DNA of 64,000 nucleotides from contig JAHGAU010000003.1 of assembly GCA_019925105.1 (NCBI GenBank), forward strand, positions 2,034,966-2,098,965. The letters run 5' to 3'. The notes below the pieces were generated by a model. The model searched no databases, was not told where the DNA came from, and saw nothing but the letters and a program-made list of their open reading frames with translations. Source of the stretch: Niebla homalea (Eukaryota; Ascomycota; Lecanoromycetes; Lecanorales; Ramalinaceae). The position numbers and the translations under genes were made by a program. Shown here piece by piece: positions 12,251 to 39,473 of the stretch (positions within the stretch are counted from its first letter, which is position 1; the number at the start of each line of letters is the position of its first letter).

Positions 12251-12408
12251 CGGCAGGGAATCTCTCCACTCAACCGCTAAAATGGCTAGCGAGGGACGGG
12301 CTTTCTTGAGGAGTGTGATCCACTCGTCGTCTGTGCGCTCCTTCGCATTCTGAAACGCAGGCACCAAAACCCTCTGCAATGCTCGTTTCTTATTAGGCTT
12401 TGGGAACG

Positions 12409-17511: not shown

Positions 17512-17539
17512 CATTCGTCATTCGTCATTCGTCATTCGT
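17512..17539 (+). repeat. CATTCGT heptamer microsatellite
   Basis: Four perfect copies of CATTCGT lie about 120 bp upstream of the Zn2Cys6 gene start, inside its probable promoter or leader. Confidence 0.9.
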
Positions 17540-17659
17540 CACTCTGATCTCCTACATAGTTCAAGCGATTGCTCGGTGTAGGATGGACCCATCCTCCGTA
17601 ACAGAGGTGCCTTCTTCACGTAAACTATACCGACACCTTACGCGCGAGACTGCGCCGCC

Positions 17660-19930
17660 ATGGACAGCGTCAACCTCAGAAAACCTGATGTACCCCTTAC
17701 GTGCTTGCGATGTCAACAGCGCAAGATCAAATGCGACAAGAAGGACCCGTGCTCTGCTTGCTGGCGTCAAGGTTTCACTTGTACCTCCATTCGCCGCCCA
17801 CGTCTCCCAAGAGGCCGTACCGGTCGAAGGAGAGACGGCGACATTCAGCGACGCGTTGCTAGACTCGAGGGTCTCTTGACCGAGCTCAAACCTACGAATG
17901 CTTCTGAATCCCCCCTTCGAAAGCCTGCTGCTCGACAACCGAGGGGCAAAACAATCCATCAAGAATCACAGATTAATAACAACGCCCATGGAGGAGATGA
18001 TCAGCATGGTGGAGAGCTTGTTCCTAATGCTGCACACGGTAGTTCACAACCCAGCCTCTGGGCTGCAGTCGATGATGAGGTCTTCCAAACGTCCCTTGCA
18101 ATTTATGCCGTTGCTTATTGAGCCGTCAGGTCCATGGCATCCGCGAGGTTCTCACAGACTTCCTGGGTGAGGAGTCGGAGATAGTATTTGCTGCTCCTCC
18201 GGCAAGTATAGAGCCTTATGCCGACTCTGAAGATACCAACACTCTTCTTTTCAATACCAGCTCTTCCTCGATTGAACCGCTCCTACCAGGTTGTATATCA
18301 GAGTCTATCGCAGCAGCGCTATTAGAAACCTATATACACCGCGTTGATCCCATCTTCAAATTGACTCATGTCCCAACGCTACGCCATCAGGTGCTCGACA
18401 CGGGTTATCAGTCTGGACCCGTCCCCCCTGGGATTGAAGCTTTCAAAGCCGCAGTATATTTTCTTTCGGTCTGCTCTTACAATGAAAATGAAATCTATGA
18501 CCTCTTCTCTCATACCAAGGCAGAGATTGTTTGTAGACTTCGTCTTGCTGCAGAGATCATGCTTTCCAGGGCAAACCTACTGCTGACTTCGGACATTTTG
18601 GTGCTTCAATCATTTGTGATGTACCTTGTACGTGGCCCCTTCTTGGATCTATACATCCTCCATACCTCCCAAAACAGCGGTAAAACAATCCATCTGACTG
18701 TACTCTATCATACAGGCAGCACTTCGTTGCAGTAGTGGCTTCCACAAGCCATGGACCTTGACTGCCATTGCGGTTCGCATCGCTCAAGGACTAGGGTTAG
18801 ATTCTGACGGCGCACATCTCACAGACCCTTTACAGCGGGAGCTTCACAGGCGCACATGGTATGCCATCGCTCTGCTTGACATGCACGCGGCTTTGGATGG
18901 AGCATCGCGCCCATTGATTGCTGGTCAGGCCATTGGAGGTCCCTTGCCACTCTGTGTCAACGACGTGGACATCTCTTCACTAGTCGAGCCTACAGACGAG
19001 CCACTGGAGTTTACGGACATGTCATTTTCGTCGATGGCAAATGAGTTTGTGCTGTGTATGGCAAGCCTGACCTTTTGTCGCCTCGTAAGGGATAGTCGAC
19101 TTTGCAGCTGCAAGCAACAGTGGACGGAGAGGCAAAAGATAGCCACTGACTGCGAGGCACGGGTACAAAGGAGGTATCTGCAATACTGCAATAGTGAGGT
19201 GCCGTTCCAGCGATACACGACGCGGGTGGGCGAGAAAATGTTCGCAACCCTGCGACTCATGGTGTATCGTCCAATACAGCCGTTTTCCAGTGCCGGGCCC
19301 CCTCCTCAAGACGACCACGATATCCTGGAGATGGCAACAGACGTACTCGAAGGCTCCATCATGCAAGCCACGGACCCAACTTTTGGCCCATGGAGATGGT
19401 GGGGCTGGGTCAAGTGGTATTCCCTAGCTATCCTTCTGACCGAGCTGTGTTCGCACCCAGAGTTGAAGCAATTAGATCGGCCCTGGATCGTTGCCGAAAC
19501 TGGTTTCGCCATGTTTTCTGAGCTCATCGGCGATGGTGCAATATGGAGGTCAATTGGAAAACTTAGGCGTAAGGCACGAACTGTAAGCAGCGATTGCCAG
19601 AACCTCTTGACCGACCCGCAGTTTGGAGTAAATATGGTCGACAATTCGTTTCCAACTGAGGCACGTCACTCTTCGACTTCGACTGGGCATCGTGGGCGCG
19701 GCGCTAGTGACAACGTGCTCGTCACAAGGGGTTTTCAGACTACGGCCTGGAATGTCAACGCATCGGACACTGCGACGCAGCAAAATACGTTGCCCGAATT
19801 GAAGGATCTGAACATGGATGGCTGGGCAGCCGATGGGTCAGATTCCATGTCCTGGACGAATTGGGAGGCTTTTCTTCAAGATGCTGGTAGCTCCAACATA
19901 TCACAAGCAATAAGTCCCTCATGCTGGTAA
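17660..19930 (+). CDS. Zn2Cys6 transcription factor
   Basis: Exons 17660-18079, 18130-18627 and 18716-19930 (introns of 50 and 88 nt, both phase 0) give 710 residues. The binuclear zinc cluster is complete: Cys 15, 18, 25, 31, 34 and 41, with the basic run QQRKIK between the second and third. It is followed by a basic linker (RPRLPRGRTGRRRDG) and a helix that could dimerise (RRVARLEGLLTEL). The central part, from LLPGCISESIAAALLETYIHR through FKAAVYFLSVCSYNENEIYDL and RTWYAIALLDMHAALDGASR, is typical of the fungal-specific transcription factor domain (PF04082-like). The Ser/Thr/Asn-rich C-terminus fits an activation region. It is nuclear by family. With the nearby P450 it is a candidate pathway regulator, by position only. 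Confidence 0.92.
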
Positions 19931-20002
19931 TATAACTGAGGGCCATTACATGCCCGAGTTCACTCCATTGACTTTCATTCCCTCCCAATCCATCTCAAAG
20001 AT

Positions 20003-20095
20003 TGGCTATCTAGAAGGCCCTCCTGTAGTACACTGTCAGCCATACGCTGGCAATTCAAAGCCTGACTGGCTCACGCTCCTGGAGGCTCCGCAATT
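20003..20095 (+). repeat. Diverged short repeat, also at 21475-21565
   Basis: A segment around TATCTAGAAGG...TGTCAGCC recurs about 1.47 kb away in the same orientation with perhaps two-thirds identity by eye. The pair flanks array gene H, so it may mark a duplicated or transposed segment. Nothing else in it is recognisable. Confidence 0.4.
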
Positions 20096-20351
20096 GTCAA
20101 GCCATCTATCCAGCGTTGTTCAAAAGGTTCAAGTTTCAGAACAGGGCAAGCTCATTGATTGATTCTAGCTGCTATGCTATGACCTTGAAGTCACTGCGCT
20201 ATATCGCACGCGCAATTTGGGAATCATGACTCTTCCTGTGTTCTTCCTGGTTGCTTCTACCACCAAATCCTCTCAGCATGACCGCCGTCAGATTGCAAAC
20301 CAATGCACGTGTAGAGATATCGTGACACAGATCGCTGAATTGCAGTCGACT

Positions 20352-21064
20352 TCACGTACTAGCTTGTGCTGCGGGTGTCGTGCTACGGGTGGAATGATCT
20401 GTTTTGTAGATTAAGTGAACGGTACAAAGCTTCAGACAATGCTCTCACTTTGAAACCCGTCCTCATCTAACCCATCAAAGATCTCCACCACGTTCCCGGT
20501 ACGAGTGTCAATGGTTTTCACCTTTTTTATCTTATCGCTTGGATGACAATCAGACCTTAATAGATACCTTAGCTGCTGCCGTAGCAGGGACATACCTGGT
20601 GAAACATTCGATCTCTTGACGCTTGAGATCGAAATAGGTCTTGGCGGCTGCAGTGTTCGGGTCTGAACCGAGATTAAGGTCGATCCACATGCCACCTCGA
20701 GCGATATTCCAATCTTTATCGGTTTGCGCGCCCGGATCCGCACTCTTTCTTGCTTCGCTCTCATATTCGGGCTGGAAGATCCATTGATTCCCAAGCTAGA
20801 AAGCTAAGTCAATAAAGAGTTGTCGAAAGCAGGTACGTCGCAAGTGCTTGTACAAAGCATCATGCTCACTTTGGTGAAATAGTCCCCGGTTGGCTCGGAT
20901 TGTGCCAGCAAATGAGCACACAGGTGCCCCACTATACCTGGAGCGTGACGGGCGTGTGTCGGAAGTATCCTGTGGAAGCTTTAGCTTGCAGGTTACTTTG
21001 ACAACCGGCATGCGTAGAGTTCTTACAGAACGGTGAGACGAGTGGGGCTAGTAGGTACTGTCAT
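20352..21064 (-). CDS. Array gene H
   Basis: Exons 21064-21027, 20978-20870, 20795-20596, 20537-20449 and 20398-20352 give 160 residues with phases 2-0-2-1. Exon 1 encodes a short start ending in TRLTVL. Exon 3 holds GGMWIDLNLGSDPNT, the counterpart of NAFIID in other copies, and exon 4 encodes KIKKVKTIDT and ends at GLDEDGFQ. Exons 3 (200 nt) and 4 (89 nt) have exactly the lengths of those in array gene C, making H and C a subfamily although they lie at opposite ends and strands. All introns are 48-74 nt with GT-AG ends. It appears intact. Function unknown. Confidence 0.65.
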
Positions 21065-22530
21065 CAACTTCCTTGGTCCCTCGACAAGCATCTTGCTTCA
21101 GCTTGTAGATTTAGCAGATTTTTTGACTTGACACCTGCTAGAGCTGTATCTGTTGTGTGTGAAGAGTTCAAGAATCAGTCCAGATGCTCCACCTTTAAGT
21201 AGTCCACGCTCAGCGCACGTCCCTCTCTGTATAACTTCACGTAAAACTCCAACTGCATTAGTTGATGCACAACATATAGATTGAATCCACTTTACCGCCC
21301 AAGAATTCTTGCAGTATCTCGAGATACCTCCAGTGAAATTGAACGGAGATGTTGGACATCGTACGCTAAGGCCCGCCAGGTATGATATCGCTTGCTGAAA
21401 GTGTATCAGACACATCCAGGCCACCTGTTAAGCAAAAGCATCAATTAATCCCTGCAGATCCACCTGCAATACTCGTTTATCTAGAAGGTCATTCCGCAGT
21501 CCAGTGTCAGCCCCACACTAGCAGCTCAAAGCTTGCCCGAGTGACGTATCTGAAGGGTTCACAATAATAAGGTCACAATCACAACGACCGTCATGTGAAG
21601 AGATGCTGACGTTGCAGACCATGCAATACTGCCGTGATCCGGCTTCACTGGGACTGCTTAGTACCCTTGGGGGAGACTTGAGACTCCTTATGCGTAGTAC
21701 AACATCAACGCCAGGCCTGTATGGTCAACATGGAAAGGGTCCGATTCTGAGACAGCAAGCAAGCGCCCAAGGATCCGGTAGCGCCTCATTGGTAGCTTGA
21801 CTTTGGGACGGTTACGGATCATGCAGTCATGACGGCGCTGCATACCGAGATTGTCAAAGAGTGGGGACAAGAGAAAATTACAGCTATCCTATTGCTCAAA
21901 AAGAAAAGGGGCCATTCCCGCCTGGTAAGCCACGGCGTCAAGCATTCCACTTCGGCGTCCAATGAGTGTCAGGGTATTAGCTGGCAGCCAGATGCCTGGA
22001 AGGTACAAGAATTTTGTACGAATATTCCGGTTGTATATTTGTTCCGCTGACCCGCAGTGTCCACTGGCAGCGCTAGCGTGACTTCAGCTCTGGAAACACT
22101 CTGCAAGAAACTAATGATGTTTGAGATCCCGGGCCAAAGCGTACCAGGGAGTTGTTTCCACGCAATGACGAAGCGTTGAGCTCGCGACTCGGTAGTACAA
22201 GACCTCATGTTTAGGTATCTGCTCCAGTCTTTGAGGGTATCTATGAGGGATCACCGGGCTGGCGGATAGGGAGATCGCAACTTACTTCTGCGCTGCTGGT
22301 CACTTTTCTCAGGCGGTCTTTTGTCATAGAGACACCGTATTCTAAGGCGAGGGAAGAGGCTTGCAAGTTCATTTAGGAAGGTGGATTTGCAGAGCCAGAG
22401 TGCGGATTAGGGCCAGTAGGGCAACCCAGGCTTACCTGATATGCATATAGCAGGTGAAGCCAGTAGATAAGAGGGCTATGCGGACCATGTCCTATATGTT
22501 TCATTGATTTTACTGGAGGAACCTGGAGAC

Positions 22531-23132
22531 TCAATGGAGATTCCATGTCCGTGGATCCAATATCCCTGCACGGTGTATGACAGCTTCCATATAGGAGGTT
22601 TCATGTCTGGAGGTACAGAAGAGATTGGGCAGGAAAATCAAAAATTTAAACGTGCAATACGCGCACTGAGTTCTTCTTTCTTCATACAGATCTTTCACCA
22701 TCCCAACATTATTCTGTCTAGTCTGAATATTACAATCAAGCAAGTGCAAAGCGTAATAGGAGAAATCTTTGTTAAGATGCCGTTCCCAGATTTCCCAATG
22801 AAATATCACCAGGGCCCTGCCATTCCTAAGAAGGAGGCTCGAATTCTCGTCGAGTGAGACCAACTGCTGGGATTTGCACTTGATAAGGCGTCAAGCTGAA
22901 TGCTAGTAGGATGAAGCCAACGAAAGCGAAGGTCGGCGACATGGATGTAGCGCGGTTTGGTGACTTCCTGATTGTGATGAAGGAGGTATTGAAGGATACA
23001 GATGTCGACGATACCTGGGGCGTAGGTCTTCCATCTACTTGACTCGATGAAGGGTCCGGTAATAGAACGACCCGGACCTAGCCAAAGCTTGCATGTAGAA
23101 GCCTGCTGATTCCTATTTCCTATACACATCAC
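22531..23132 (-). pseudogene. Possible decayed array copy
   Basis: On the minus strand a frame with LHPTSIQLDALSSANP resembles the start of exon 3 in array gene A (GSPEQIQLNSN). About 80 bp on, in another frame, GRALVIFHWEIW precedes a phase-2 donor, followed by a short exon ending ILDPRTWNL. The order fits the array pattern but needs a frameshift, so this is at best a relic. It could be chance. Confidence 0.25.
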
Positions 23133-23297
23133 AGATCACGCAGTTCCAACTCGATGACAGTAACACCAACCTGTTCATGCTCGATATTGGCAGCACAAGC
23201 AGGTATTACGAGCATCATACGGCACTTATGGACATAATTGAGACGGAGAAAACATTGCATGTCTACCAACAGCATGCCTGATGTATGACGAGCTGAC

Positions 23298-23660
23298 GTG
23301 CTTTTCAGTTTGGGGACTCGAGGATTGCACACCTATGATGAGTGCACCAAATGGAATGTCACGACGAGTGCGTATCCTGACCCCAATTCAGGCCGTTTGA
23401 GTAAGACTGTGCTTCTCCGTGCACTTTGCGACTCTAGACTTACTCCTGATCTAGAGTTCGTGAGCTTCTTCACAAAGGAGGAAAAAGAAGCAACTGTTTA
23501 AGTCCGCGTCAAGTCAAGTCTGGCCACCTCAGATTTTGCTTTCACTGGTCGCACAATCTGATGGGAATAAAGCTGAAGAAGTATGATGGTGATGGAGATA
23601 GATCAATGGGTTGTATCAAAGTGTCAAAGCTCATCTCTCGCGCATATGGCACCGTCAACT
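23298..23660 (+). pseudogene. Possible decayed array copy
   Basis: The frame WNVTTSAYPDPNSG resembles exon 3 of H, a GTGAGC donor follows, and beyond a CTCAG acceptor lies KKYDGDGDRSM, which recalls the exon-4 end. The intron phases do not match the rest of the array, so the assignment is weak. Confidence 0.22.
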
Positions 23661-24601
23661 CCGACGTCCATAGACAGCACAGGATTTCAATGAATGAATC
23701 AGGCCTAATCCGAAGCTAGAACTCTTCGATCAACCTTGGGTGACTAGGTTTTCCCGTCACACCGAGCGCCTCTGCGAATCAATGCAAGTCTCTATAAACT
23801 GTAAAATGCACCTTCAATTCACCTATAGCCCTCTTCTTATCTCACACCGTAGTATCTAATGTAGTCAGATGACACGAAAATGGGAGAGTAGGACTGGGGT
23901 CCGGAACGAGTTTGAGAATAGGAGTTTGCCTCTGTATCCTTGTGCAGTGGAGGTACCGACCGGACAATTGTCATATTTACTCTTTAGGGGCGCAGCTGCC
24001 GTCCAAATTGACCAAATTTGCCACGGGTGATGTTTTGCTACACACAGACTACCAAGATTCCATTTCAAGGGTACTCAACAGTCTCAAGTCTCCACGTGTG
24101 CACTTCCGACGTGCCAGGACCTGCAACGTTGATTATTGTCACGCACCTGTTGTCCGGCTAGTCACCGTAGCCCTAGCAATCGGCGGGGCTAAGTATAACC
24201 AGTCAAGTGAGAGAAGGTGGGTCCGGGACAAATCCATGTTTCGCGCATCCTCGCGTGCAGTCCACGTGGGAGGTTTGCAGTCACATTGGCTCCGCTCATA
24301 CTCAACAGTTTCAACCGGGCTGATCTGCTACCCATCAGAATACTGGAGCAATATCTTTGGAGGCCTGTACGTACAATGTCCTACGTCTTTAATTAACCTT
24401 ATTGGAGAAATGCCGAGACTTAAGGATCCGCTAGTCCCTGTACGCCATACGTCAGCGTCCATGATTTGGGTTATTAAGATATGCTTCCACGGCGGAGTTC
24501 CTTCTTCCATACCAACTTCTAGTTGTCTCGACCATATTTTATCTGAACATAACATTGCTTGCGATCAAAACTCACAATCTGCTTGTTCAAGTCAAGTCGA
24601 T

Positions 24602-25400
24602 ATGGTCCAAAAAGACACCATCCAAGGCGTAGTGCCTCAGAATTGGAATCGTCTTATGATCCTGTAAGTCTCTAATGGGATGGCATACTCGATGTTAGAG
24701 ACTAAGGTGTTGATAGTATGAGGACCTACAAGGCAGACACTTTCGAAAAGATTGACGTCGAACTTATTGAAGCCATGTTCACCAGATTGAAATTCCCCGA
24801 TCGTTGGCAGGTACGTGGGGCAATTGTTCAGCGTGTGGGCAGAATTCTTCTAGGCCTACTTGATCTGACGGCATAGTGGCACCCTATCAAACGCGCCGAC
24901 GGGGCAGAAACCAACGTTATCGCCCTCGACACTGACACTCAAAGTCCGGGATGGGAGAATATACCTGGAACAACCACGAAAGCCAGGGTTACTATGATGG
25001 TCAGTGCTTATGAAGGAGGGTAAGTTTCAACATTCAGGGAAAGATTATAGCAGAATGTTCACTGATTTATCATTCATGTCCTTAAGCGCGCCTTCAGTTA
25101 ACGCCGTGCCTATCTTCATCACCCCGCACGCTATCGACAGTATCTTTGGGGACAACAAGATCTCTATCTTCAAGGTCAAAGTCGATGATCGATCCACCAA
25201 GAACGATGTGAAGGTTAGCGAAGGAATGGAAGATGGCTACAATGGTATAAGCTCCAGTTTTATCACACACAACCTGCGTCTTACCAAGTTCTGTGTAGTG
25301 CTTGAGGTTGCGTAAGATTCGGACGCCGCTTCCGCCTGGTCCTCGAGGTTTGAACTTCTCCACTGTCCAGCTTAACCTTCAGTCGATGGATGACAATTGA
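24602..25400 (+). CDS. Array gene F
   Basis: Exons 24602-24663, 24717-24810, 24877-25019 and 25141-25244 follow phases 2-0-2-1. The last exon is uncertain: splicing from GTATAA at 25245 to an acceptor at 25348 ends at 25400, while reading through ends at 25315. Exon 1 encodes MVQKDTIQGVVPQNWNRLMI, strikingly like exon 1 of gene E in its P-x-x-x-NRLxIL end. Exon 2 ends in KFPDRWQ, exon 3 contains NVIALDTDT, and exon 4 encodes KISIFKVKVDDRS and ends EGMEDGYNG. No lesion is seen. A long open frame (23912-24667) runs through exon 1 but shows no domain. Unknown function. Confidence 0.65.
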
Positions 25401-26469
25401 TGAGAGGCGATCAGGAAAGAAATACGAAATGTCATGATTCTCTTGCTGCGTCTACAACCAGCGCGGTGACCCAACCTTCTAGTATAGCAGCTAGAACTAA
25501 TCAATGGCTTTTCCCTGACTTTAAATTACTCCGTATCACAGTAACTTTGACACATGTCCCTGCGAAAATGCATGCCCTATACTGAATCTTCAAAAAAGGC
25601 TGTCAAAGAAGGGGTGGAAAGACGACGCCATACTTGAGTCTGCCTCATCTAGAGATGGCCTGCGTGGATCCTTCTACGATCCAGGTCTACGATACAGTGA
25701 CCGGGCTGGGCTATCAGATGACTTCTGGTGCGAGACCGGAACTATGGAGTTTAATCGAGAGCACGATTTAATGGCATGTGGTCATCACATGTGTACCACA
25801 ATACTGGCATGAGTGTCCATGGATTAGCGGTCAGAATAGACTGAACGAAGAGTCTCAACTGGGCTTGTTTCAACTATACTTGCGTTTTAACTGTAAAGGA
25901 AATCAATTGTGTCATGCAAGGTAGCATTTTCGGGTCAGGAGACTTTCTGCATCTCATGAAACGAGAAGCCCATTTGTTGTATACGTCAGCTCGGTCTTTG
26001 CTAACATTTGCAAAATAAAAGAATGTTATAGGCTTATGATACTTGGAGACACAAGCCGCCCACATTCAGCTCTCTTTCTGACGTTTTTCATTGGTTTCCC
26101 TTGACGGAGAATCAGAGTAGGTCAAGAGACTCTATCTGACGCTGTTATTGAAACTGAAAAAGCTAGTGCATCACGTGAAATGAGATACCCAATCGAGAGG
26201 AGCCTGCGTGTTACACCAGACTGTTTCTAAATAGCCGACTTCATCGTACAGGACGGGGCCTTAGGATCAGCAGATCTCCATATGAAACAAATTCTCCCGT
26301 GCGTCTCAGACGTCAGATGATGCAATCTCATGCTCCACTGCAGCTGTACGGCGTGTCGGGTTGAAGAGACTCAGAGGCTGGAGTATATAAAGCCCACGAT
26401 TGCTGGCTTATGATGAGTTCTCTCAATACTTCTTAACAGTCGTAAAGATAGCCTAGAAGTCCAAGCACT

Positions 26470-26553
26470 ACGATTTTGTGCAAACGATTTTGTGCAAACG
26501 ATTTTGTGCAAACGATTTTGTGCAAACGATTTTGTGCAAACGATTTTGTGCAA
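26470..26553 (+). repeat. 14-bp minisatellite before array gene G
   Basis: Six perfect tandem copies of ACGATTTTGTGCAA. The array ends 36 bp before the start codon of array gene G, so it lies in its promoter or 5' leader. No other copy of the repeat is seen in the window. Confidence 0.95.
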
Positions 26554-26589
26554 AGTGCGTGCCGTGAACACCTAGGTCTTCTCGGTAGG

Positions 26590-27271
26590 ATGCCAAAAAT
26601 ATATGCCAGCAGGACAGAAGAACTTGAGAGCACCAAGGACACTCTCATTATTCGGTAGAACCGCTTATGCTTACTTCATCCCCAAGCCTGACGTACTCAA
26701 AACTTCTTAGGATTAGGCCAAGGCTCTTAGGCCAATTTCCGAATGTCGCAAAGATGTTGGATGAAAGCGAGATACCGCGGGGCTGGCTGGTGAGTCAGAA
26801 TTGCGCATCTAAGCTCGCATGATTTATGCTTTCAGTGTCACGAGCGCGTGAAGACATCTAATTTCTCTTATGTACACTGCAGTTAGTACCTAGGCTCCTG
26901 GAATCTGGCAGCACGAGCATGAACCAGAACCAGAACTTCTATGTACTTTCGTGCCACAAGATCGACACTGAGTGGCTTAAGTTCGATTGGATAAACAGGG
27001 CCGAGAATCTAGTCGAGGCGACAGCACAAAACCTGAGATCATACGATAAGTAAGTGTTTTCTCTAGTCTATGAGTATAGCGGTCGAAGACTCATGACCTA
27101 CAAAGCGAGCAGATTGGGGAGGTAGACTGCACCATTTACGGAGTTGGATACTTCTACATCACCGATGAGGACGATGGCAAGGGTCTCAATGGTTAGTCTT
27201 GCCTCGACAACTCATTACATTGTGGAGAGAAACTGACATCCAGATCAGCCATCAAGAAGGCATACAAATAA
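26590..27271 (+). CDS. Array gene G
   Basis: Exons 26590-26654, 26711-26789, 26883-27049, 27106-27191 and 27249-27271 give 139 residues with phases 2-0-2-1. Exon 1 encodes MPKIYASRTEELESTKDTLI and is 65 nt, the same as in gene E. Exon 2 ends IPRGWL, close to DRWQ in F and WFWN in E. Exon 3 contains NQNFYVLSCHKID. Exon 4 encodes IGEVDCTIYG and ends TDEDDGKGLN, and exon 5 adds only AIKKAYK. All acceptors and donors are canonical. It is intact and is the most diverged member at the NAFI position. Unknown function; no secretion signal. Confidence 0.65.
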
Positions 27272-28114
27272 AGTGCACATGGGATCTGGGCTCTCGACAT
27301 GGGTCTGTTAGGACGGTATCTCAAGTGACAAACACGTGGCTGATTCGATAGAAATTGTCTACTATTCAGGGGAGGCCTGTCTAGCTTGCGTATCTATTCA
27401 TATAGCTCTCACTACAGATATGCAAGTTAAAACAAATACTCATTGATGTCTCTCGCCACAGATGTGCCTTTATTTTACACGCTACTGAATGGTGCGGATC
27501 GACCATATTATAGGTGATGTTTAAGTCGTTGGAACTGTATGTATATCTTGGTGACTCGCATACCACAGCGTGGTATTAACCCCGATCAAGTTCCAGTTAA
27601 GGTAACATAAATGATCTGGCGAAGGGAAAACGGGAGCACGGGAGGTTACATTCAACGGATCGTCAGAGCCGTTATCCACATAGAATCTGTGATTTATTCT
27701 TCGGTTTCGTGTCTGTGTGAACATTAGTGAGCGTAGTACTTCTTTTGAAAACGGTGAAACAGACCAGAGTGGCGAAGAAGACGGGCAGGCATTGGCGCTT
27801 AAATCTCAGGAAGTATTAGACTTGCCCGTCCTTACAGGGCAGGGCCATGGAGCGCCCTAGACTCCATGTGGCGCACGCCTTTTGGCAAGTTGTTCTTTTC
27901 GTGTTTCGGCAGACGCTGTCGTACAGCAAGGAGTGGCGAAAGAGGAAGCAAAGTATGGAGGGGCAAACAAAAGCACGATACATAAAGCCATGAAACTCCT
28001 CAGAAGTAGAGCTTTTCGAGCACAGTCTGAATCGTAGAAAGGTACCCTCTTCTCTTATACCTATTTTCATAGTTTCTGAACGCTTAACCAGTCGGAGTCT
28101 GAAGCTTATTCAAT

Positions 28115-28866
28115 ATGGGGGATCTCAACAGTGACTTACAGCACTGGGCGCCCAGGACGCCCAACCGTCTTTACATCTTGTAGGCACCTCCTGGCAGAAC
28201 TTGTATCTTATTGACATGTCAGCTAAGCTCTGAAAAGCTTGAAGCCTACTGATAAAAGGAATCCTTTGGTCAAGGGTGATTGCGATCGTGTGTTCAGGTC
28301 TTTTGGAATTTGCAAAGAGAAGTGGTTCTGGAATGTAAGTCGCGCTTGTTTTCGGAGTATAGCCTTTGAATCCTGTTTCAGTCATAAAATCCGGGAATTT
28401 TGCTTGTGAGATGCGACTTACATCTATCCGCAGACGGAGAAGATCATTCTTTCGAAGCGTGGCGCAGCCAGCAAAGAGCTATTCAACGTCGCCTCAATCT
28501 TAGTCGACTGTAGCGGCAATGTGCAGTATCCTTGGATGGAGGGTTTTCGGCATACTACCATAGGCAAGGTCGAAGCGACGCAAATTCTATTTGAAGGGTT
28601 CCAGGAGTAAGAACTATCATAGGATCCAGCAAGGTTGCTCAAAGTTGACGTGATTTCTAGTCCTGAGGGCAGGATCGGAGAAGTCAAGTGCGAGGATTCG
28701 GCAACTGTCTTTAACATGCTGATCAAAGATGGGTTGGACGAAGAAGGCTACCAAGGTCAGGAAACAAGTGTAGCGGGTCTAGCCGGATGCGTTGCTAAAT
28801 TTTCGAATAGTCTTTGATACCCACACAGGGCCAAGAGCTCCCGATCACCATTGGGGCCCTGTGTAG
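28115..28866 (+). CDS. Array gene E
   Basis: Exons 28115-28179, 28238-28334, 28434-28606, 28661-28755 and 28829-28866 give 155 residues, phases 2-0-2-1. Exon 1 encodes a start ending in RTPNRLYIL. Exon 2 ends KEKWFWN. Exon 3 begins TEKIILSKRGA and holds FNVASILVDC, the NAFIID counterpart. Exon 4 encodes RIGEVKCED, then IKDGLDEEGYQ, with the last intron cutting the codon after the motif as in every other copy. Introns are 54-99 nt. No lesion is visible. It pairs by sequence most clearly with F in exon 1 and with G in exon 4. Confidence 0.65.
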
Positions 28867-30133
28867 AGCGGGCATATTTGCGAATGACCATTGAAAATTT
28901 TGGAGATGTCTGCCTGCATAATATGGTCAATGAATGAGATGAAAGAGTTGGTGCTAGGCTCAAGAGGAAAGATCGCTTTGTCACGGATACTTACATGGCA
29001 TGTCAAAAAGATGTTATAGCAAGTTCAATGTCTGCTGATCTTAGAACACATTCATGCAATCATTTCACCGATTTTTGCGCCTGAGAAGAGCTTGTTGTCA
29101 GCGGGAATATAATTTTGATTGGAAGAGTAATGCGTGGTACATTTCGCCAGCTTTTCGTTGAGATCCATTGGTGAGTGGTTTCACTTTGCATGGCGTCACG
29201 CGGTAGTCGGCGTTTGGGTATTATGTTCCACAATAACGAATCGAGTGATAATGTACCCTCACTTTTTTACATTTTTTGGAAAGTTAGTGACTATACTAAT
29301 CCTTTTGTGATGCCTGGGAGTAGCACAAGTGGGAGTCTTGAGGTTAGAGACTGTGAATAAAAGAGTTGTCGAGTCATTGTTAAAGCGTCTGGCACTTTTT
29401 CGAAGCTGCTATTGGGCGTAACAGGAGGTTTAACGTGAAGGAGAAGACTCCCTGCCAGGAGGCATTCGTGAACCAAGGCCGCGAAATGCACCGTTTCAAA
29501 ATTTACGCTCCGCGCTAGACAATGCTTCTCTTCACTCTACGTCGCTTGAATTAGCTGCACCGTCACTCGTTACAACCATTAGACGACTGTGGGAGAAGCA
29601 TTTGAAGTCGGAACTTGTGTCATCATGGCAGCCGGTGTGTTGCGGCAGAGAGTGCGGGCAAGGAGTATAACATGGAGGTACATCTGGTACCAGCTCGGGT
29701 ATATCATGCAGAATAATTGCACCCACATTCTGTGTTACACATCATATCTCTGTGGAATAATGCCGTAGAAGGGAAAGTGTCAGACGCCAGCACTACAACA
29801 TAGAAGACTTATTTCCGTTTCCAGTGACGCGGGTTCCACCCTTTCACAAAGCCGACTGAGATATAGAAGAAGAGAAGCCGAAACCCTAAGCCTGCTAAGT
29901 GGTAGAACAAAACAACATGGTACCTTGGGACGTCGTCAATGACCTATCCCTGGAGACACCTGCAGGACCATCACGCGCGATGACATAAACGTTTCGATTT
30001 AATGGGTTAATGGAAGGCTAAAGGAGAAATGGATACTTAAGAAGCAAAAGCCCACAGCTCGAGCTCTCTTCCCACAATCAAAGCATCCCCTATTCTTAGA
30101 CACAAGCTCACGGACAACAGTTAATAACCAATC
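28867..30133. other. Gap in the array, no intact gene
   Basis: Short ORFs only. At 29190-29225 a frame MASRGSRRLGIM followed by GT in phase 2 recalls an array exon 1, but no matching exon 2 follows. The motif CTGGAGACACCTGCAG lies at 29950-29965, about 170 bp before array copy D. Confidence 0.35.
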
Positions 30134-30804
30134 ATGGCTACCGCCTACCGACACGGGGTGCAGGAAAAGGAGCGCCAACTCGTTGCTGCATAAGACTTAT
30201 ACACGCGATCAATCCACTGCTAGAAGCTAACGTTCTATTTAAGGGCAAGCCAATCGGACAAGACCTCATGGCGATTTGCCGAGATGCGAGAGCTGCCTTT
30301 GGTACATGTCGTCAATACACTGCACATAATATGTGAGAGTGAGGACGTAAGTGTATTGCGGTCCGCGACGTTTTATCGATGATTTCATCGCTTGTCAGAG
30401 TTCCTGGAACTCATCAACGACCATCGTTGAGCCATCATTACAGCAGACCCTGAACGAATAAATCTCACGACCAGGAGTAATGAAGATAGTACAGTCAAGC
30501 CAACCAACGCTTTTATCTTGGATGTGATTGTGCAGTCCGTACGAGGTCTTGCGCTCCAAGAGGTACAAAATCTGCTGAATATAAATACGGACGTGGGGTA
30601 GGCTCTTGCTTATCGATGTGGTCCATAATCGATGACTAGAATTCGATGGAAAGCCCATATGCTCGCCTTCATATTGACGACAGCCAATCTCTTAATATGA
30701 TGGTTGACGATGCCATCGATGCCCGCGGCTTGAGTATTGCTGCCCCTGCAGCGCTATCCATGCTATGTCTAACTAATTGTTCTCTAGGGGTCAGACCTTG
30801 TGAG
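30134..30804 (+). pseudogene. Array copy D, broken
   Basis: Inferred exons are 30134-30189, 30244-30346, about 30444-30597, 30654-30733 and 30788-30804. Exon 1 is 56 nt as in A and B and encodes MATAYRHGVQEKERQLVAA, but the expected intron donor reads ATAAGA instead of GTAAGA at 30190, a G-to-A change. Exon 2 ends in HIICESED. At the start of exon 3 one base is missing relative to A and B, so the frame into DPERINL is lost. Exon 3 then has KPTNAFILDV and exon 4 has LHIDDSQS and DAIDARGLS. The two lesions together make a functional product unlikely. Confidence 0.6.
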
Positions 30805-31578
30805 GATTAGGCGATGGGAAGACCTCTTTCGACCCATTTTTTTCGTATCCTCAACTGCTTCGTTTGAATCAGGCCACTTCGCAATATCAGTCAAAAGTGA
30901 GGACTTGATCGCGGCGATCAATCGAAAGCAAACGCCAATAGTAACATTACGGTGTCTATAGATAGGATGGAGAGCCCTTTATGCAAACTTTTCAAGTACA
31001 TCATCCGTATGTTGATTCGATTATTGTAAAACTCGCAGTCAACATAGAAATTAAGTTTCCGTTGATTTGCCAATTGACAAGCTGATTTTGATTATTATGA
31101 GGTCGCTCAGTTGAGAAGGTCCTTTGCATTTCCTGTCCTGCTTCGCATAATGGCCTCCGAGCCCACTCGATATGAAGGGCGTAAATGGTAATCATTCGCT
31201 ACTTAACACGAGTCTCTGGATAGACACATCATTACATTGGTTGCTGACTTTATCCTGTCCAATGCTTCGGGAGCAAGACTAACCGAGCAGCGTAATTCGC
31301 GGACTCACTTACCAGTAAGCGCCGAAAATCGCACGTGAGGTATCAGCTGCGGCGTACCGAGTTGCGAAGCGCACACTACTGTATTTCGAAACGTTTCAGC
31401 ATCTTCCACGTGGTAATACTGGCAAAACCTTGCCTGAAAATGACGTGAGCTCTTATCATCCCTTGTCACATGCGGGGTGGAGATTGGGCGACTGATCTCT
31501 AAAGTCAAACTTCACTAAATTTACGCGCTTTCTCGATGTTCGCTTAGCTGTTCCAACGAATAGGCGGGCGACATAGTA

Positions 31579-31773
31579 ATGATGGGTCTGCTGAGGGGGT
31601 GTTTTAGCCAGGAGACACTACGTGGTGGGACGCCGCAGCTTCACGTCGCATATCATGCCCGCAGAGTTTCACGATATGGCGTAAATTACGGTGTACTTTT
31701 TCATGTTAAAGGAGGAGCAGTAATTGATTCTGAAGGAGCAAACATGCAGCTCAGTATCCTGATTTCATTCTAA
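31579..31773 (+). pseudogene. Array exon-4 relic K
   Basis: The frame GVLFHVKGGAVIDSEGANM matches the exon-4 end of the array (strand, then ID-E-G) and pairs closely with the minus-strand relic near 36.6 kb (LLHIKGSAAIDQLHFANI). No complete set of upstream exons was found, so it is likely a truncated copy just before gene A. Confidence 0.35.
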
Positions 31774-31816
31774 TATGTCCTTGAGCACTAGCTCAGATAA
31801 CACTTCTTATCGAATA

Positions 31817-32527
31817 ATGGCGGTCAGGTATGAAACGATCGTAGACGTTGGATATCGCCGGCTTGTTGTTGTGTGAGCCCAGTGTCATGGAAAGAGTGCT
31901 GATTTCGTGAGGGGCCTAATAATCTTAAAACAGAGGCAAACCGAAAAGCGGCAATCCTGGTGAGGTTTATGCGGACGTGGAGGATCGATTCGGGGCATGG
32001 TTCAGTAATAAGGTTCGAGTGGCGATTCCATGTGAAAGTGCACGCGTAAGCAGAAAATAACCCCATTTCCTGACAATCCTGAGCTGCCCACCTAGGATGA
32101 TTAAACTGAATCAATTTGGCAGGGCTCCCCCGAACAAATCCAGCTCAACAGCAACCACGGCTCGGACGATCGTCGACCAACCAACGCCTTCATCATAGAC
32201 GTGCTGAACGGCGTGGGACTGAACGTCGATAATGTAATCAAGATTCTCATCGAGAGCAAAAGAGAGTTGTAAGTTTCCTCAAATATCCAATCTCTGCATC
32301 AGTAGCTGATTAATTCGCATGCTTTAAGCCCTGATTTTGCCGACCTACGTATAATCGATTGTCGTCAGGGTGGCGCCAAAATCACACATGCCATCGATAA
32401 CAATGGGTTTCTGAGTACTGCAGCCTTTACCAATTTGCTCGTCATATTCGACTGATGATTACCAGGTGTGTCGGCTTACAGTCAACAAACAGCGGTAAAA
32501 ACACTTGACCCTGAACACCCCTCCTAG
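31817..32527 (+). CDS. Array gene A
   Basis: Exons 31817-31872, 31934-32045, 32123-32268, 32329-32414 and 32466-32527 give 153 residues, phases 2-0-2-1. Exon 1 encodes MAVRYETIVDVGYRRLVVV. Exon 2 encodes DRFGAWFSNKVRVAIPC. Exon 3 begins GSPEQIQLNSN and holds RPTNAFIIDV followed by a helix (VDNVIKILIESKRE). Exon 4 encodes LRIIDCRQGGAKITHAIDNN, then GFLS across the last intron. Exon lengths 1, 2 and 4 (56, 112, 86 nt) equal those of gene B exactly, so A and B are the closest pair. Intact. The strand-strand-helix-strand order in exons 3-4 suggests a compact alpha/beta domain, an inference. Confidence 0.68.
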
Positions 32528-33806
32528 CTTTCACTGGAGATACCTCCAGTGTTCGCGCACAATGGAGTGCGCCACAAAAGATGACGTAGAGGCCGCTGTT
32601 CGCTGCACCAAAGACTATTGAGATAGATCAAGAGACCGCTAGATAGTTCAGATTGTAACCCTAGCGACTGTCTGTTTATCCAAATCTCCATAGTTGAAAG
32701 TGACCGCTCGTTTATATCTTATGGCTTTTTCTCAAGCTGTGCATAATTAAGTAGTCACGGCATTTTGCAGCTCAATTCAGCTATCATAGCCATCAAAAAG
32801 CATCCTAGCAGTTCTCGATTGTCGCAAAGCATCAAGACGTGTCGGGTTAGGACGTGCCAATAGTGATACGTATTATCGTTGATTGCTGAGTCGTATCAGA
32901 GAAATCCTTAGATTGAGTGGATGACCAAGATTGCGTTTGCGGAAGTAATATATGTGTGAATCGATCCAAGAACCCTGCGCATTGGTCAGTAGATCCGCTG
33001 TCCGTTTAGTAAAGCGTCTACATAGCAGATCTTGTTTCCAAGCTAAACGTTCATTCCTCACAGGCGTTCTTCAGAACAAATCTTGCTGGTGGATGTAAGG
33101 TTCTATCCTGCACTCACTCTCGAGCTTTACGTGTTAGGTGACTTGCCTATTTAATGCCGCTCTCAAGAAATGGCCATCAAGTATTATCTTGAGTATGTGT
33201 GTAAAGCTCCCGCAAAGAATCTGCGGCGGCGCGATTTGTCGCAGTACATGTACGACTACGTCCGATACCGTCCTGAACTTTGACCTCAGACATGTTTTAT
33301 GTTTCGCAGGGAATGGGGGGGGCCCGGTGTGAATGCGGATGCTTTTACACAGAGTTTTCCAAACCGGTACTTAAGGCTTCGAGATGGCGCCTCATTGGCT
33401 TGAGAAGTCGTATCATTTCTTATTGCGTCGCCATGGCTTTTGAGTACGAAACAAGGAAGCAGTAACTTCACTTCTAGTAATGTGAGATCCTGACGTATCT
33501 GCAACCCTGCAGCGTGAATTGTTTCAAGGCTGCATGTGAAGTCCTTGTAGACAGGTAAGTGGCTCCTTGAGCTGTACGACAACTTACTGCAACTTCGCAG
33601 CCCTTAATATTTAAAAAACCTTTGCAAGCCTCAAAGCCAATTTTTGAGCTTCCAAACTTTCCGTTACCGATAGAGGGCTGGAAAAAGATACTGAAAAAGC
33701 GAAGCCTGCTGCCTGAATTGTATTAGTGACCGTTTTCATTCTTCAAAACCGATTTTAAAGTTTTTCATGCCTTTTAAAACCCAGAAATACCAGCTCGCAT
33801 CCCTCT
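32528..33806. other. Gap between array genes A and B
   Basis: An imperfect palindrome (CACTGGAGATACCTCCAGTG, 32532-32551) directly follows gene A. Around 33064-33100 a frame RSSEQILLVD recalls exon 3 of A but leads nowhere, so a decayed copy is possible. Otherwise nothing is recognised. Confidence 0.35.
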
Positions 33807-34548
33807 ATGGCAAACGGTCACCACTATGTTGTGCCGAAAAAACACCGCCGGCTGATTATTGTGTAAGGCGCATCCTTGAAAGTTTGCTTCTCAGGCAGTC
33901 ATACTAAGATAGGACTTCAGGGGCCGGGCGCATGGGAAAGACGCGAAGAACGTGCCTAAGAGCGCGGAACGTATTTTTGGTCCATGGATTGTTAATCATG
34001 ATAGCCTAGGGATCAGATGTGGCGGTGAGGTGGTAAGTAAGACCCAAGCTCAAAAGGCTTGTCCCAATGGCACTACTTATTGTTGCCAGCTCCGTCGCTT
34101 TTCGTACTATGCTGAGCCTTTGTAATAGGGACACCCCGACCAGATTGTGCTAAGGACTGGGGGCGGAGGCAAAAACGATAAACGAATGCTGAACAACGCT
34201 TTCATTGTGGAGGTGGCCCAAGACGCCGGGTTGGAAGTCGAAGAAGCAATAGACAGGATCAGGTCGCGCATGAGTGAATGGTGAGGCCTGGGTTAGCTCC
34301 ATCACTTCTGCAGCGACTCTGACTGGATTTTAGTGAGCTGTACAACGGATTGCTTATTGTTGACTGCCGCAAGAAGGAACATATAGTTTGCAACAGCATC
34401 GATGATAACGGATTCTTGAGTATGAATTCGCCAAAGCCCTTTTTGTTTCGCAGCTAAATGATCGTCAATGATTGGTGAAGCCGAACACAGGATAGGTGCC
34501 AAACATGATGGCCATACTAATGACAGCTTGGTGCATCATACTGGATAG
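33807..34548 (+). CDS. Array gene B
   Basis: Exons 33807-33862, 33921-34032, 34129-34280 and 34334-34419 keep phases 2-0-2-1. The fifth exon is uncertain: a likely acceptor at 34480 gives an end at 34548, but earlier stops are possible. Exon 1 encodes MANGHHYVVPKKHRRLIIV. Exon 2 holds ERIFGPWI and LGIRCGGEV. Exon 3 begins GHPDQIVLRTGGGG and holds NNAFIVEV with a helix (VEEAIDRIRSRMSE). Exon 4 encodes LLIVDCRKKEHIVCNSIDDN, then GFLS. Lengths of exons 1, 2 and 4 equal those of gene A, while the DNA between them is unalignable by eye. No lesion seen. Confidence 0.65.
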
Positions 34549-34559
34549 TCAAGACAGTT

Positions 34560-35340
34560 GCAAGTGAGGGGCTGACTATACTGATTGACGGCAAGGCAAT
34601 CTGTCCCGTACAGGTGTCGGTAATGTGTCCACTCATACACAAAGCGTGTATTTGTTAATGTAAATCATGGACTTCACTTTCTGGGCCACTGTGCTTGAAA
34701 GTCCAGTGGATTGTCTATTATCGCACCAACCAGGACCTGCCCACACTTTAAGACCTGCTTGCCTCGTCAGAAGCAGAAAAAGTTGCAATTCCACCAAGAT
34801 CACCACCTTTCTTACCTTTCACTTGATCCAGATCCGGCCAACTGAGGAAGCTGAAAGTCGCTACCTTTGACTGGAATTACAAAATTGACATCAAGGTCCC
34901 TGTCGCAGAGAATATATTTGGTGTGGGACAAGTAGTCCGGCGTAGCCTACGTTGCAGTTGTGTTTGCTCCTTCAGAGATTGGGACGACGCGTTTTCAACA
35001 CAATGTTGGAAGTTGCCTATGGTTGGAAAATTGCGTAACAGAACGTCCCAGCCGCTGAACAGCAAACAAAGTATGAATAGCTTCACTTGCACCGACCCAA
35101 GGACCTTAATCTTAATATTGTGTAACTTACCTGATTCAAGGCTGCACGTGAGAACTTGAAAGACCTGCGATTGGATCTACGGACGCGCGCTCCGGTGTCG
35201 GAGCCCCTGCATTCCAAACAAGATGGTAGCAGCTTCCCTTATAATGACTATACACACGAGACAATGCGTTTTGAAGAAAGTCATATCAAGAATAGAGCCG
35301 GCAGTTGCAGCTTGCTTTCTTGATCATCCAAAGGCTTTCT
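34560..35340. other. Gap with a coding-like block, unresolved
   Basis: A continuous frame at about 34851-35065 reads LKVATFDWNYKIDIKVPVAE and onward, and a second open block (35145-35322) follows a plausible GTATGA...TTCAAG intron, but the frames do not join without a stop. It may be part of another small gene or a relic. No family recognised. Confidence 0.25.
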
Positions 35341-35435
35341 CTGAGTTAGACTGGTTCACAATTCTTTCACTGGCTTGATCCGTTCTCAAGAATGATTGCC
35401 ATTATTCGCACGTGATTCGCTCAGCCAAAGACAGA

Positions 35436-36158
35436 ATGTCACACCCGAGAGCGCTCGCAAGTGTCCGCACACGCCGCATAAAGAAGGCTGAGAACCGTGT
35501 TGTCGCTGGGTAAGCACTCCATGCTGGGTTATACATGGATGTAACAAGGAGGCTGACAGAATCCATGAGATGTTTACCAAGGACCAAGAATGCAGTGATC
35601 TCGGAGGTTCAATTCAAGACGATTTTGGATCAGCGAGAAATCTGATGCACAAGAGTAAGCTAGTAGTCATCCAGATGCATACTTTACCGTCACGTCAATC
35701 GATCCAAGATTTATATTTATGAGCTCTTGACATCGTTGCAGGTCGAACAAGTCAAACTCAAGGCGCCTGATTTCAGCAATTCTCCATCTAAATCGGTCAA
35801 TGCCTTCATTCTGGACCTCGAGACAGTCCAGCCTGAATGGACAGACTCTGATTCCGATAGGCCGAAGCCTGCCGCCAAGGGTCTTGGTGTAGTACAAAGA
35901 GTGTTGGATAGGCTTGATGAGACCGAACTCGATGACGGACGGTATGGTTTCTATTGGAGCCTCGATCCACGAGTTCAGTGCTTACAAGAGTGCACAGGTC
36001 AGAAATTGAATATATTCAATGCTATGAGATTTGTCTTGGTGCCGACACGGTAGCGACGGACCGCATCGACGAGGAGGGTTATCCGGGTACACTTGCTCCA
36101 AGACGCCTGCTGAATAAGTCTTGCTGCTTCAGGGTTGAAGATACTCACACCACCTTAG
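35436..36158 (+). pseudogene. Array copy C, in-frame TGA in exon 2
   Basis: Exons 35436-35509, about 35549-35653, 35742-35941, 35998-36086 and 36133-36158 follow phases 2-0-2-1. Exon 1 encodes MSHPRALASVRTRRIKKAEN and ends VVA. In exon 2 the frame that joins both introns reads QREI-stop-CTR, where A, B and D have IPC, IRC and IIC, so TGA (possibly from CGA) interrupts it. Exon 3 has SVNAFILDLE and exon 4 encodes IEYIQCYEICLG and ends DRIDEEGYPG. Exon 3 and 4 lengths (200 and 89 nt) match gene H. An alternative acceptor inside exon 3 (after GAACAAG) could bypass the stop with a different phase, so loss of function is likely but not certain. Intron 1 is unusually short (39-42 nt). Confidence 0.58.
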
Positions 36159-36469
36159 AAGAAGGAGCGGAATGTAGAATCTTTAAAGGGTCTTGCGTAA
36201 AGGGAAAACGGACCCATTGAGCACAGGCTTCTGCAGTCCTCCGATTGTGATAGGATGTCAATACGTCTAATATCGACAAGTTGGTCGAGGAGGCAGTCGG
36301 GACAGTCAGTACATGACTTCATGGGGCTGAGGTTAGAATAGAATTGTTCAATCGGGCTTTCTCAATCTGGCGCTCTGTCAATTGCATTTGGGCTCTTGGC
36401 AGACTCGATGTACTTATGACATGGAAGGAGCTTAGCGATTTCAGAAACAAGCAATTGCCATGTCTTGAG

Positions 36470-36800
36470 TTACAGACGCCACCAGGCAAGCGCTTCTGCT
36501 AATACCGTGTGGAGTATCACCATGATGGCAGAGAAATAGAAGTCGTGGATATTGGCGAAATGCAGTTGATCGATCGCAGCGCTGCCCTTGATGTGCAGTA
36601 GCGTACCCAGCCTGCAGTTGCTACACCGGAGCTCCAGAAAGATCAGTGACTTGTCGACTGCTCTTACCCCTCCGATTGTCGCCTGGTCTGTATGACGTGC
36701 TTGAAAGCGTCCGTTTTCAGCGCTGTCTTGGAACACTTCTCGGGTAAACCTCGGGAAGTACCCTTGAGGAGCCATCACAGCTGCTCATGCTTTTAGATCG
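36470..36800 (-). pseudogene. Array relic L
   Basis: On the minus strand an exon-3-like frame GLPEKCSKTALKTDAFKHVI (TDAF in the NAFI position) ends in phase 2 at a GTAAGA donor. After an acceptor CTGCAG the next block reads LGTLLHIKGSAAIDQLHF, the exon-4 counterpart. Earlier exons were not found, and the GxF/Y motif is degraded. It marks the right edge of the array in inverted orientation. Confidence 0.4.
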
Positions 36801-37050
36801 AAGGCTTTCATTCGCCAGGAAGATGACTTCTGCTTCGCTACTCCAGATAAGCTTGCTTGTGTGACGTCGATGATGGGTTCGCTTCAGTAAGAACCATACG
36901 TGCCTGAACCGTCTTGTTTTATTATGAGCTCCTGCTTCCCAGAGCCTTTCACTTATCGCCTTTGGTCTCCATCTTCAATCACCAACACTTGACGTCTCAG
37001 CTCACAGCCTACGTAGCCTTTCTGTAGACAAGCTAAGATCCACAAACGCC

Positions 37051-39473
37051 ATGCCTGGACTTGAAGTGGCATCCCGCCATTGCGGCCCCCTGCATGCTGA
37101 CTTGTACGATCTCTACGTCCAATACAAGCAAGACACCCGTGCTGTTATTAGATGGCTCATCAGTCATGGTACGATTGAGCAACAAAACTCGCGGGCCTTG
37201 TCCATCAATGATTTGTTCAATCTCTCCCAAACTGCGTGCGCGAAGAAGGTTGAGATGCCTGACACAGTCGGATTCCTCTTTCGCAAGGTGATCGAAGCGC
37301 GTCAACAGCTCAGCAGTTTCTTCAAGACATCCAGCGCCGATGGCCAACCAGACCAGGATACTCAGAACCACGAGCACTTCACTGGCAGGTATGGGAAGCA
37401 CTTCCGCAACATAGTCGCCACCATGGTGCTCACTACCTGCTTCTAGCTTGACAGTGATGTATCAGGATCTATGCAAGTGCTGTGCTAAGCCGAAAGACAA
37501 TTGCACGAAAGCGAAACGACGGCGCTCATCGACTCGCAGCTTGGGAGCTCCTGGGAATCGGTTTGCTGATTTGAAGCTCGAGGAGACGCCAGTTGTCGAG
37601 CAGCACTCAAGCAGTAAGCCTGATTCGTCCGGTCAGAGACCACTAGAAAAAGTTAAATATGTCGACAAGTCCGACATCGCCACCCCCTTGCTCACCGACG
37701 ACTCCTTGGGTGAAATGCTGGAGTTGCGAGAGGCGGTCCAGGTACAGTATTCTGCCCGCCCGCTTAGCGTTCCACATGACAGCTGACAGATTCGCGCAGG
37801 ATATTGATGGTCTCTTGAAGACAGTCTCACAGACATGGGAGCAGGCAGCTCGAGACGAGATTCCGCTGCAGGTCGCAACCACTTTGACAAACGTAGCCTC
37901 TACGGCGTTCGAAGGCATCGAGCAACGACTGAAGCTATCATGCAACGTGCATGATCCGCACGAGCTACGAAGCAGAATTGCCCGATCAAGCGGTCTTTTC
38001 AAGGAGGTCATCCCCCGAGGAAGTGAAATTGACCATTTACCGGAAGAAGCCGTAGAGATGCTCTCACGGTCCTGGGATCTGCTTTTGCATTGCAAGAAAG
38101 AATACGAGACGCATGGGGGGGTTGCCACACATTCTCAGAATACTTCATCCACTTCCATCGTGTTTCGAAAGAATCCGGAGTCGGCGGCCGAGCACTATGA
38201 TCAGCTTCAGGTGATGCTTAGGAATATTAAGCAACACATCGTGCCTGGCTACCTCACCTCAAGCATTGTCAGTATACGATCCCCTGTATACGCAGAGGTT
38301 GGCTATCTGTTAGCTCATGAGGACCCATCATCGAATAGCCTACGCTGCTGTTTCGGTCTGCAGCTTCTCCTGCAGATCTGTCGCAGATTTTTTTTTGAGT
38401 CAAGACCCTCGCGCTTACCGTCAAGCTGCCGGCTCGAGGCTCTGCGAACGGCACAAACCGCCCTCAAAAGCATTCGTAAGGTGTTGAAAAGCCCGACAAT
38501 GCCTTGCAGGTGCCATGGAACGTTGGCATACCACCTGGAGAATGTCCAGATGGACTTGGAAGGGTTCCTGCGCGCACGTGTCTTTGACCTTTACTTCCAA
38601 TCACCGTGGGTTTCCGGTTCTCATATATTGGAAATTTATGACATCCTGTTCTACTATGGACTGCGTCTGTTCAGCTACAAGACCTATGTTGGATCGGTCC
38701 TTCACGTATACAACATTCTCAGGCAACTTACCGACATGGCAGCTATTCCATTGTGCGATCGCCTGATTGCAACCTTTGCCCACGCCCTCTTCCCTGGAGG
38801 CGTCCCCAGTCGCAATTTCAGAACATGCTATATTCGGTACCTCGGAGGGAGGCTGAGATTCAACACCCACAAGTCAAAGCATAGATCTGGCTGCCATTCG
38901 ATGGCCATTCCTGCTCACGCCGCAAGCGCGACCGCTGGGTTTGGAAAGCGCAGTGAGATCGATGATCCAATCCTCAAATACAGAAAGGTATCTCTGCTGT
39001 ATCACATCAAAAGTACGGGCAGCCATATCGACAATGGAACGTGGGAAAATATCCGTGATTGCGCGGAAGCCGGACATTCTCCACCAAGCCCCCAAAGGGG
39101 TTGTATCCATCATACTGGGGCCAGTTCAATCTTGCAATGTCCGCTAAACCAACTTCGCAACGTGCAACAAGCGCTGTGCTCGGAATTCAAGGGTGATTTG
39201 CCGATTGCCAAGGTCAATCTTCTCGAGGTGTACCTTGCATTTGAGCAGGTGGTAGCCAATCTCAGTGACAAGTCTCATGGGGAGCACTCACGTCCAGACC
39301 AGTACTGTCTCTGCTTCGTTGATTCGATCCTGTCGGCTGCCGACCGTTACAGAGACTCCAAGGCTCACCACCCCATATTAGGTCACAAGGAGCTAGTCAA
39401 CACCTGTCGTGAAGCCATGATGAAGCATCTGGGGAGCCAAGATCTGAAAAGCTTTTGGTGGGACAGTGCTTGA
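37051..39473 (+). CDS. DUF6604-domain protein
   Basis: Three exons are proposed: 37051 to about 37400, about 37470-37709, and 37768-39473. The second intron (37710-37767) is well supported, in phase 1; the first junction is unclear because the candidate introns are short. The N-terminus (LHADLYDLYVQYKQDT, then VIRWLISHG) and the later SINDLFNLSQ, GFLFRKVIEARQQLSSFF and LAFHMTADRFAQDIDGLLKTV segments match, from memory, the DUF6604 domain at the start of many long fungal proteins. The remaining ~570 residues are mixed helical without a motif I can name. The molecular role of the family is not known to me. Length near 770-800 residues is usual for it. If the first intron is absent, a frame change near 37400 would make it a pseudogene. 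Confidence 0.65.

What the first reader, a model, noticed from the sequence alone, without database searches (positions are those of the whole stretch)
20352..36158. Array of small genes united by intron phases, not sequence
Eight genes (H, F, G, E, D, A, B, C) have exons joined in phases 2-0-2-1 at matching points of the protein. Exon 1 ends in RLxIL-like text, exon 3 has (T/N)NAF(I)xD, exon 4 ends at ID(E/D)xG(F/Y). Overall residue identity looks very low. A gene family that keeps its splice plan while the protein sequence is almost free to change suggests strong diversifying evolution, as in effector, allorecognition or conflict proteins. I recognise no known family.
Basis: partly seen in the sequence, partly recalled or inferred. 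Interest (0 to 1): 0.92.

Follow-up and report, generated by a model that had tools for sequence, protein, structure and literature searches.

The report
Fungal gene array sharing splice plan
A stretch of fungal DNA carries a row of small genes that have changed almost beyond recognition in their protein sequence but still split their coding sequence at the same points, so they form one old, unnamed gene family whose job is not known.

Summary
Eight small genes at 20.4-36.1 kb can be read with GT-AG introns in phases 2-0-2-1 at matching places. A scan for that plan without any motif finds 9 clusters in the 16 kb array; eight are the genes, and 0 of 2000 shuffles reach 9. Of all 81 phase plans it is the commonest in the array and ordinary elsewhere. 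I add a ninth, apparently decayed copy at 30.1 kb, and two members outside the window on contig C9, found through a genome-wide pattern and the same plan. No Pfam, NCBIfam, PHROG, PDB or protein-database relative was found in the searches made.

'Strong diversifying evolution' is not shown. Third codon positions are at or near saturation, introns and most upstream DNA have lost similarity too, and second positions in the closest pairs are constrained. There is no signal-peptide-like start and no HET match in the window. My reading: an old, lineage-restricted family of small, probably intracellular proteins, duplicated in tandem near AT-rich blocks and mostly kept by purifying selection. That they are partner-binding modules is only inferred. 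Whole proteins were not folded; two low-confidence exon-3 models did not agree.

The parts
20449..21091 (-). Gene H, exons 1-4: 21027-21091, 20870-20978, 20596-20795, 20449-20537; short exon 5 below 20449 uncertain
   Evidence: 2-0-2-1 scan; exon 4 ranks 1st of the non-training six-frame pieces with the profile of the others, but E is only 0.84
22777..23400 (+). Gene F, exons 1-4: 22777-22853, 22907-23021, 23135-23202, 23309-23400; exon 5 uncertain
24602..25315 (+). Gene G, exons 24602-24663, 24717-24810, 24877-25019, 25087-25244, possible exon 5 25299-25315 (stop)
26590..27182 (+). Gene E, exons 26590-26654, 26711-26789, 26883-27049, 27106-27182 (or to 27191); exon 5 uncertain
28115..28755 (+). 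Gene D, exons 28115-28179, 28259-28334 (or from 28238), 28434-28606, 28661-28755; exon 5 uncertain
   Evidence: exon 4 rank 1, E 0.003
30134..30733 (+). Ninth copy X30, apparently decayed: exon-like pieces 30134-30189, 30244-30301, 30444-30597, 30654-30733; no GT at the first donor, intron 2 read in phase 1
31817..32527 (+). Gene A, exons 31817-31872, 31934-32012, 32123-32268, 32329-32414, 32466-32527 (possible exon 5)
   Evidence: exons 3 and 4 rank 1, E 0.033 and 0.0051
33807..34419 (+). Gene B, exons 33807-33862, 33921-34032, 34129-34280, 34334-34419; exon 5 uncertain
35436..36086 (+). Gene C, exons 35436-35509, 35560-35662, 35742-35941, 35998-36086 (alternatives); exon 5 uncertain
1..51000 (.). 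Part of a GC-0.5 island of roughly 96 kb bounded by AT-rich blocks (mostly GC 0.14-0.30 upstream; 0.2-0.3 from 52 kb to the contig end)

Best explanation
The array is an old, lineage-restricted tandem family. Each gene makes one small, probably intracellular domain of about 115-155 residues from five short exons. Copies arose by tandem duplication, with starts every 1.5-2.0 kb, near AT-rich blocks; at least two more sit at the start of contig C9. They diverged until synonymous sites were at or near saturation. What was kept is the splice plan, the hydrophobic strand-like segments (exon 1 end, exon 3 NAFIxD, exon 4) and the D-x-G-F/Y turn before the last intron. The most likely working mode, inferred and not shown, is one shared core with a variable surface, each copy binding its own intracellular partner (protein, nucleic acid or ligand). 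Estimated likelihoods: one family by descent 0.93; same fold in all 0.6; partner-binding function 0.3.
Confidence: 0.6

Rival explanations
1. Host-directed effectors released without a classical signal peptide, diversified by a host arms race.
For: Small, very divergent, tandem, near AT-rich blocks; precedents for splice-plan families among effectors (PMC9168663, PMC3582587).
Against: No hydrophobic N-terminal start in any of the 9 (highest 12-residue mean 1.26); no measurable excess of amino-acid change; the host life style is unknown.
Confidence: 0.15
2. Allorecognition or conflict proteins, one specificity per copy.
For: Tandem repertoire near a contig end; lineage-specific genes cluster with HET genes near telomeres in Neurospora (PMC10684091).
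Against: No HET match in the window among 78 listed in the genome; no toxin-like or NLR domain among the Pfam matches of the array or of the 20 neighbouring frames scanned.
Confidence: 0.12
3. RNA-binding RRM-like (beta-alpha-beta-beta-alpha-beta) proteins; NNAFIVEV would be an RNP1-like strand (motif recalled).
For: By eye, the order of strand-like and helix-like segments in A, B and Y2; no call supports it.
Against: No RRM match in Pfam at E 10 for the nine window copies and two C9 genes; profile-profile of A, B, C and X30 against 17 RRMs of the same genome gives 0.3%.
Confidence: 0.06
4. Chance: open exon-like pieces picked to fit a pattern.
For: Motif-free 2-0-2-1 models also occur elsewhere (8 clusters in 35 kb of the window; 12 in 67.5 kb).
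Against: 0 of 2000 shuffles reach the array's 9; out-of-sample member Y1.
Confidence: 0.03

Closest known systems
Bicycle genes of aphids (Stern and Han 2022, PMC9168663)
   Same: Gene family recognised by exon sizes and phases where sequence search fails
   Different: Aphid genes, putatively secreted, many small exons nearly all in phase 2, CYC motifs; here a fungus, 5 exons, ordered phases 2-0-2-1, no signal-peptide-like start
RNase-like CSEP effector candidates of Blumeria (PMC3582587; also called RALPH effectors, name recalled)
   Same: Fungal, low identity, common ancestry argued from a shared intron position
   Different: Secreted, one shared intron, RNase T1-like; here four introns and no Pfam or PDB relative found
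Telomere-near lineage-specific genes of Neurospora (PMC10684091)
   Same: Clustered duplicates with few or no known domains near chromosome ends
   Different: Defined by phylostratigraphy and BLAST, not by splice plan; associated with HET genes, not seen here

Membership tests
RNase-like CSEP (RALPH) effectors | N-terminal signal peptide | tested here: not met
   No hydrophobic N-terminal stretch in 9 of 9 (simple hydropathy only)
RNase-like CSEP (RALPH) effectors | Single intron at a shared relative position | tested here: not met
   Four introns per gene model, phases 2-0-2-1
RNase-like CSEP (RALPH) effectors | RNase T1-like fold | not testable with these tools
RRM (PF00076) | Match to the RRM profile | tested here: not met
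   No hit at E 10 for 11 proteins; hhalign probability 0.3% with four of them
HET-domain allorecognition genes (PF06985) | HET domain in the gene or beside it | tested here: not met
   No match in the array proteins; 78 matches listed in the genome, none in the window
Bicycle genes | Internal exons nearly all of phase 2 | tested here: not met
   Mixed ordered phases
Bicycle genes | CYC motifs | not tested
   Motif seen only as a name in the paper
The family described here | Four introns in phases 2-0-2-1 | tested here: met
   8 of 9 window copies and the two C9 genes; X30 departs at its first two introns
The family described here | D-x(0-3)-G-[F/Y/L] before intron 4 | tested here: met
   10 of 11 copies; F ends DPNSGRL and E fits only in its longer reading

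The most novel reading that the evidence does not exclude
The genes are a fungal repertoire of intracellular recognition or immunity proteins: one new small fold, many specificities, built by tandem duplication at chromosome ends and detectable mainly by its splice plan.
Probability: 0.13. Interest if true: 0.85.

Novelty: new variant of a known kind. Interest (0 to 1): 0.55.

Why it matters
It is a worked case in which intron phase order still carries the homology signal where sequence has nearly lost it, and a genome-wide search guided by it found a further member. Ordinary protein searches would count most of these as unrelated orphan genes. If the family is common at AT-rich edges in other fungi, many 'orphans' there may be one family.

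Tried and rejected
Protein-database searches: 0 of 515 and 0 of 33 word-sharing candidates scored E <= 10. A control with a neighbouring single-frame LRR gene found 5 relatives, so the database does hold relatives of this genome's genes. Genes cut into 20-60-residue exons may be missed there (my inference), so the negative is weak.

Other genome-wide attempts: similarity search with six of the window genes joined in one query (H, G, E, A, C, F) found only those genes, 23 matches, all in C3:2055394-2071053; queries with B exons 3-4 and with D found only themselves; this search does not even find A from B, so it is insensitive. A looser NAF pattern gave 33 places: 4 array genes, Y1, the 2 already rejected, 18 that look like one dispersed repeat (14 identical), 7 others that I read and rejected, and 1 with the same letters as one of those that I did not read. 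In the promoter word search the best of 10,376 words (ACTTAA, p 5e-6) just misses significance after correction. RRM hypothesis rejected. No Rfam match at the gathering score. The 200 kb upstream control is mostly AT-rich (GC 0.29), so I added 67.5 kb of GC > 0.42 sequence. Hydropathy and Chou-Fasman estimates (scales recalled) are rough.

Full report
Setting. The window is the last 64 kb of contig C3 (2,098,965 bases) of a 50.6 Mb genome in 52 contigs. The array lies about 28-44 kb from the contig end, in a GC-0.5 island of roughly 96 kb between AT-rich blocks. The block from 52 kb on has a RIP-like dinucleotide signature (TpA/ApT 1.33, other index 0.24); the array does not (0.76, 1.24). A telomere is not shown: no run of two or more TTAGGG units was found in the window.

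Observation. Reading the DNA by hand and by script gives eight genes of four defined exons plus a short, mostly ambiguous last exon, with intron phases 2, 0, 2, 1. Seven run on the + strand; counting the ninth copy, starts are 1.5-2.0 kb apart. H is on the - strand. To test chance I wrote a gene-structure scan (exon and intron lengths, GT-AG, open frames). With a simple pattern at both ends it finds 7 clusters, all in the array, none in the rest of the first 51 kb and none in 200 kb upstream; F was missed because of its short exon 3. With exon 3 allowed to be short and no motif, it finds 9 clusters in 16 kb: the eight genes and one spurious. 2000 dinucleotide shuffles give 1.11 +/- 1.02, at most 6. 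Of all 81 phase plans 2-0-2-1 is first in the array (9; mean 2.54) and ordinary in the other 35 kb (8; mean 8.79).

Beyond the window. The NAFI pattern, made from the array, occurs at 6 places in the genome, 4 in the array; the other two showed no related frame. A pattern for the end of exon 4 plus donor gave 21 places (reversed control 5), 4 in the array. I read all 17 others; one, on C9 at 9.6-10.2 kb (Y1), is a complete 2-0-2-1 gene with NAFILHV in exon 3. My first scan missed it because of its last donor; with any GT allowed it fits and the remaining 16 do not. Next to it, C9:11861-12455 (Y2) holds another 2-0-2-1 model. Both lie just inside an AT-rich stretch at the start of contig C9. 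Out-of-sample profile ranks are 1 (Y1 exon 4, E 1.8) and 30 (Y2 exon 4); the other exons rank lower, 87 to 4341. A similarity query with Y1, Y2 and X30 found no further copies, 12 matches, all to the three query genes. More distant copies cannot be excluded.

What it encodes. The proteins have 116-155 residues before the tail, 0-4 cysteines, net charge +2 to -8 and no signal-like N-terminus. Rough propensities suggest, unevenly across copies, strand (end of exon 1), helix (exon 2), two strands and a helix (exon 3), two strands (exon 4). Two AlphaFold2 models of exon 3 alone are weak: B gives strand-strand-helix (pLDDT 59.9), H helix-strand-strand-strand (pLDDT 56.7). They do not settle whether A, E and H superpose, and the H model does not support it. 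No library gave a match worth naming: best E values 0.024-0.25 in Pfam for five of the eight proteins, no match for F, Y1 and Y2, 0.17 in NCBIfam, 0.088 in PHROGs, 0.22 or worse in PDB.

Neighbours. An LRR gene, P450, NmrA-like (below Pfam's cut-off) and Zn2Cys6 regulator upstream, DUF6604 and MFS downstream, most other frames without a match: ordinary fungal genes that give no clue to function.

Literature. I read the outline, passages and discussion of PMC9168663, and passages of PMC3582587 and PMC10684091; other papers were seen in search listings only. Searches on splice plan, orphan arrays and subtelomeres (20 of 99 listed; 10 of 68; 20 of 36; 12 of 16; 96 and 99, none) listed no paper that I recognised from title and abstract as describing this family; DUF6604 has no paper in the library.

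Noticed in passing
window 49457-50979, - strand: Two neighbouring frames look like one secreted pre-pro-protein: signal-like start, then a KR site followed by a glycine/alanine-rich hydrophobic stretch; no Pfam match for either frame.
   Followed up: no
window 20000-36200: CACGTG occurs 9 times here against 5 times in the other 34.8 kb of the first 51 kb, seven of them within about 0.5 kb upstream of G, E, A or C; post hoc.
   Followed up: partly
window 26470-26554: Six copies of a 14-base tandem repeat directly upstream of gene E.
   Followed up: no
window 322-834 and 1422-2045, + strand: Two frames share the text FSPKxYLTIHDLYMRFAPLKSLTK, another local duplicate.
   Followed up: no
window 36928-37446, + strand: DUF6604 gene beside the array; the genome search listed only two DUF6604 matches, both on C3.
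   Followed up: partly
genome, many contigs: AATGCTTTTATCCTTTAGGT, apparently part of a dispersed repeat, turned up at 14 places in the NAF pattern search.
   Followed up: no
window 29200-30133 and 30900-31816: DNA upstream of X30 and of gene A keeps a weak resemblance, more than other neighbours except F-G.
   Followed up: partly
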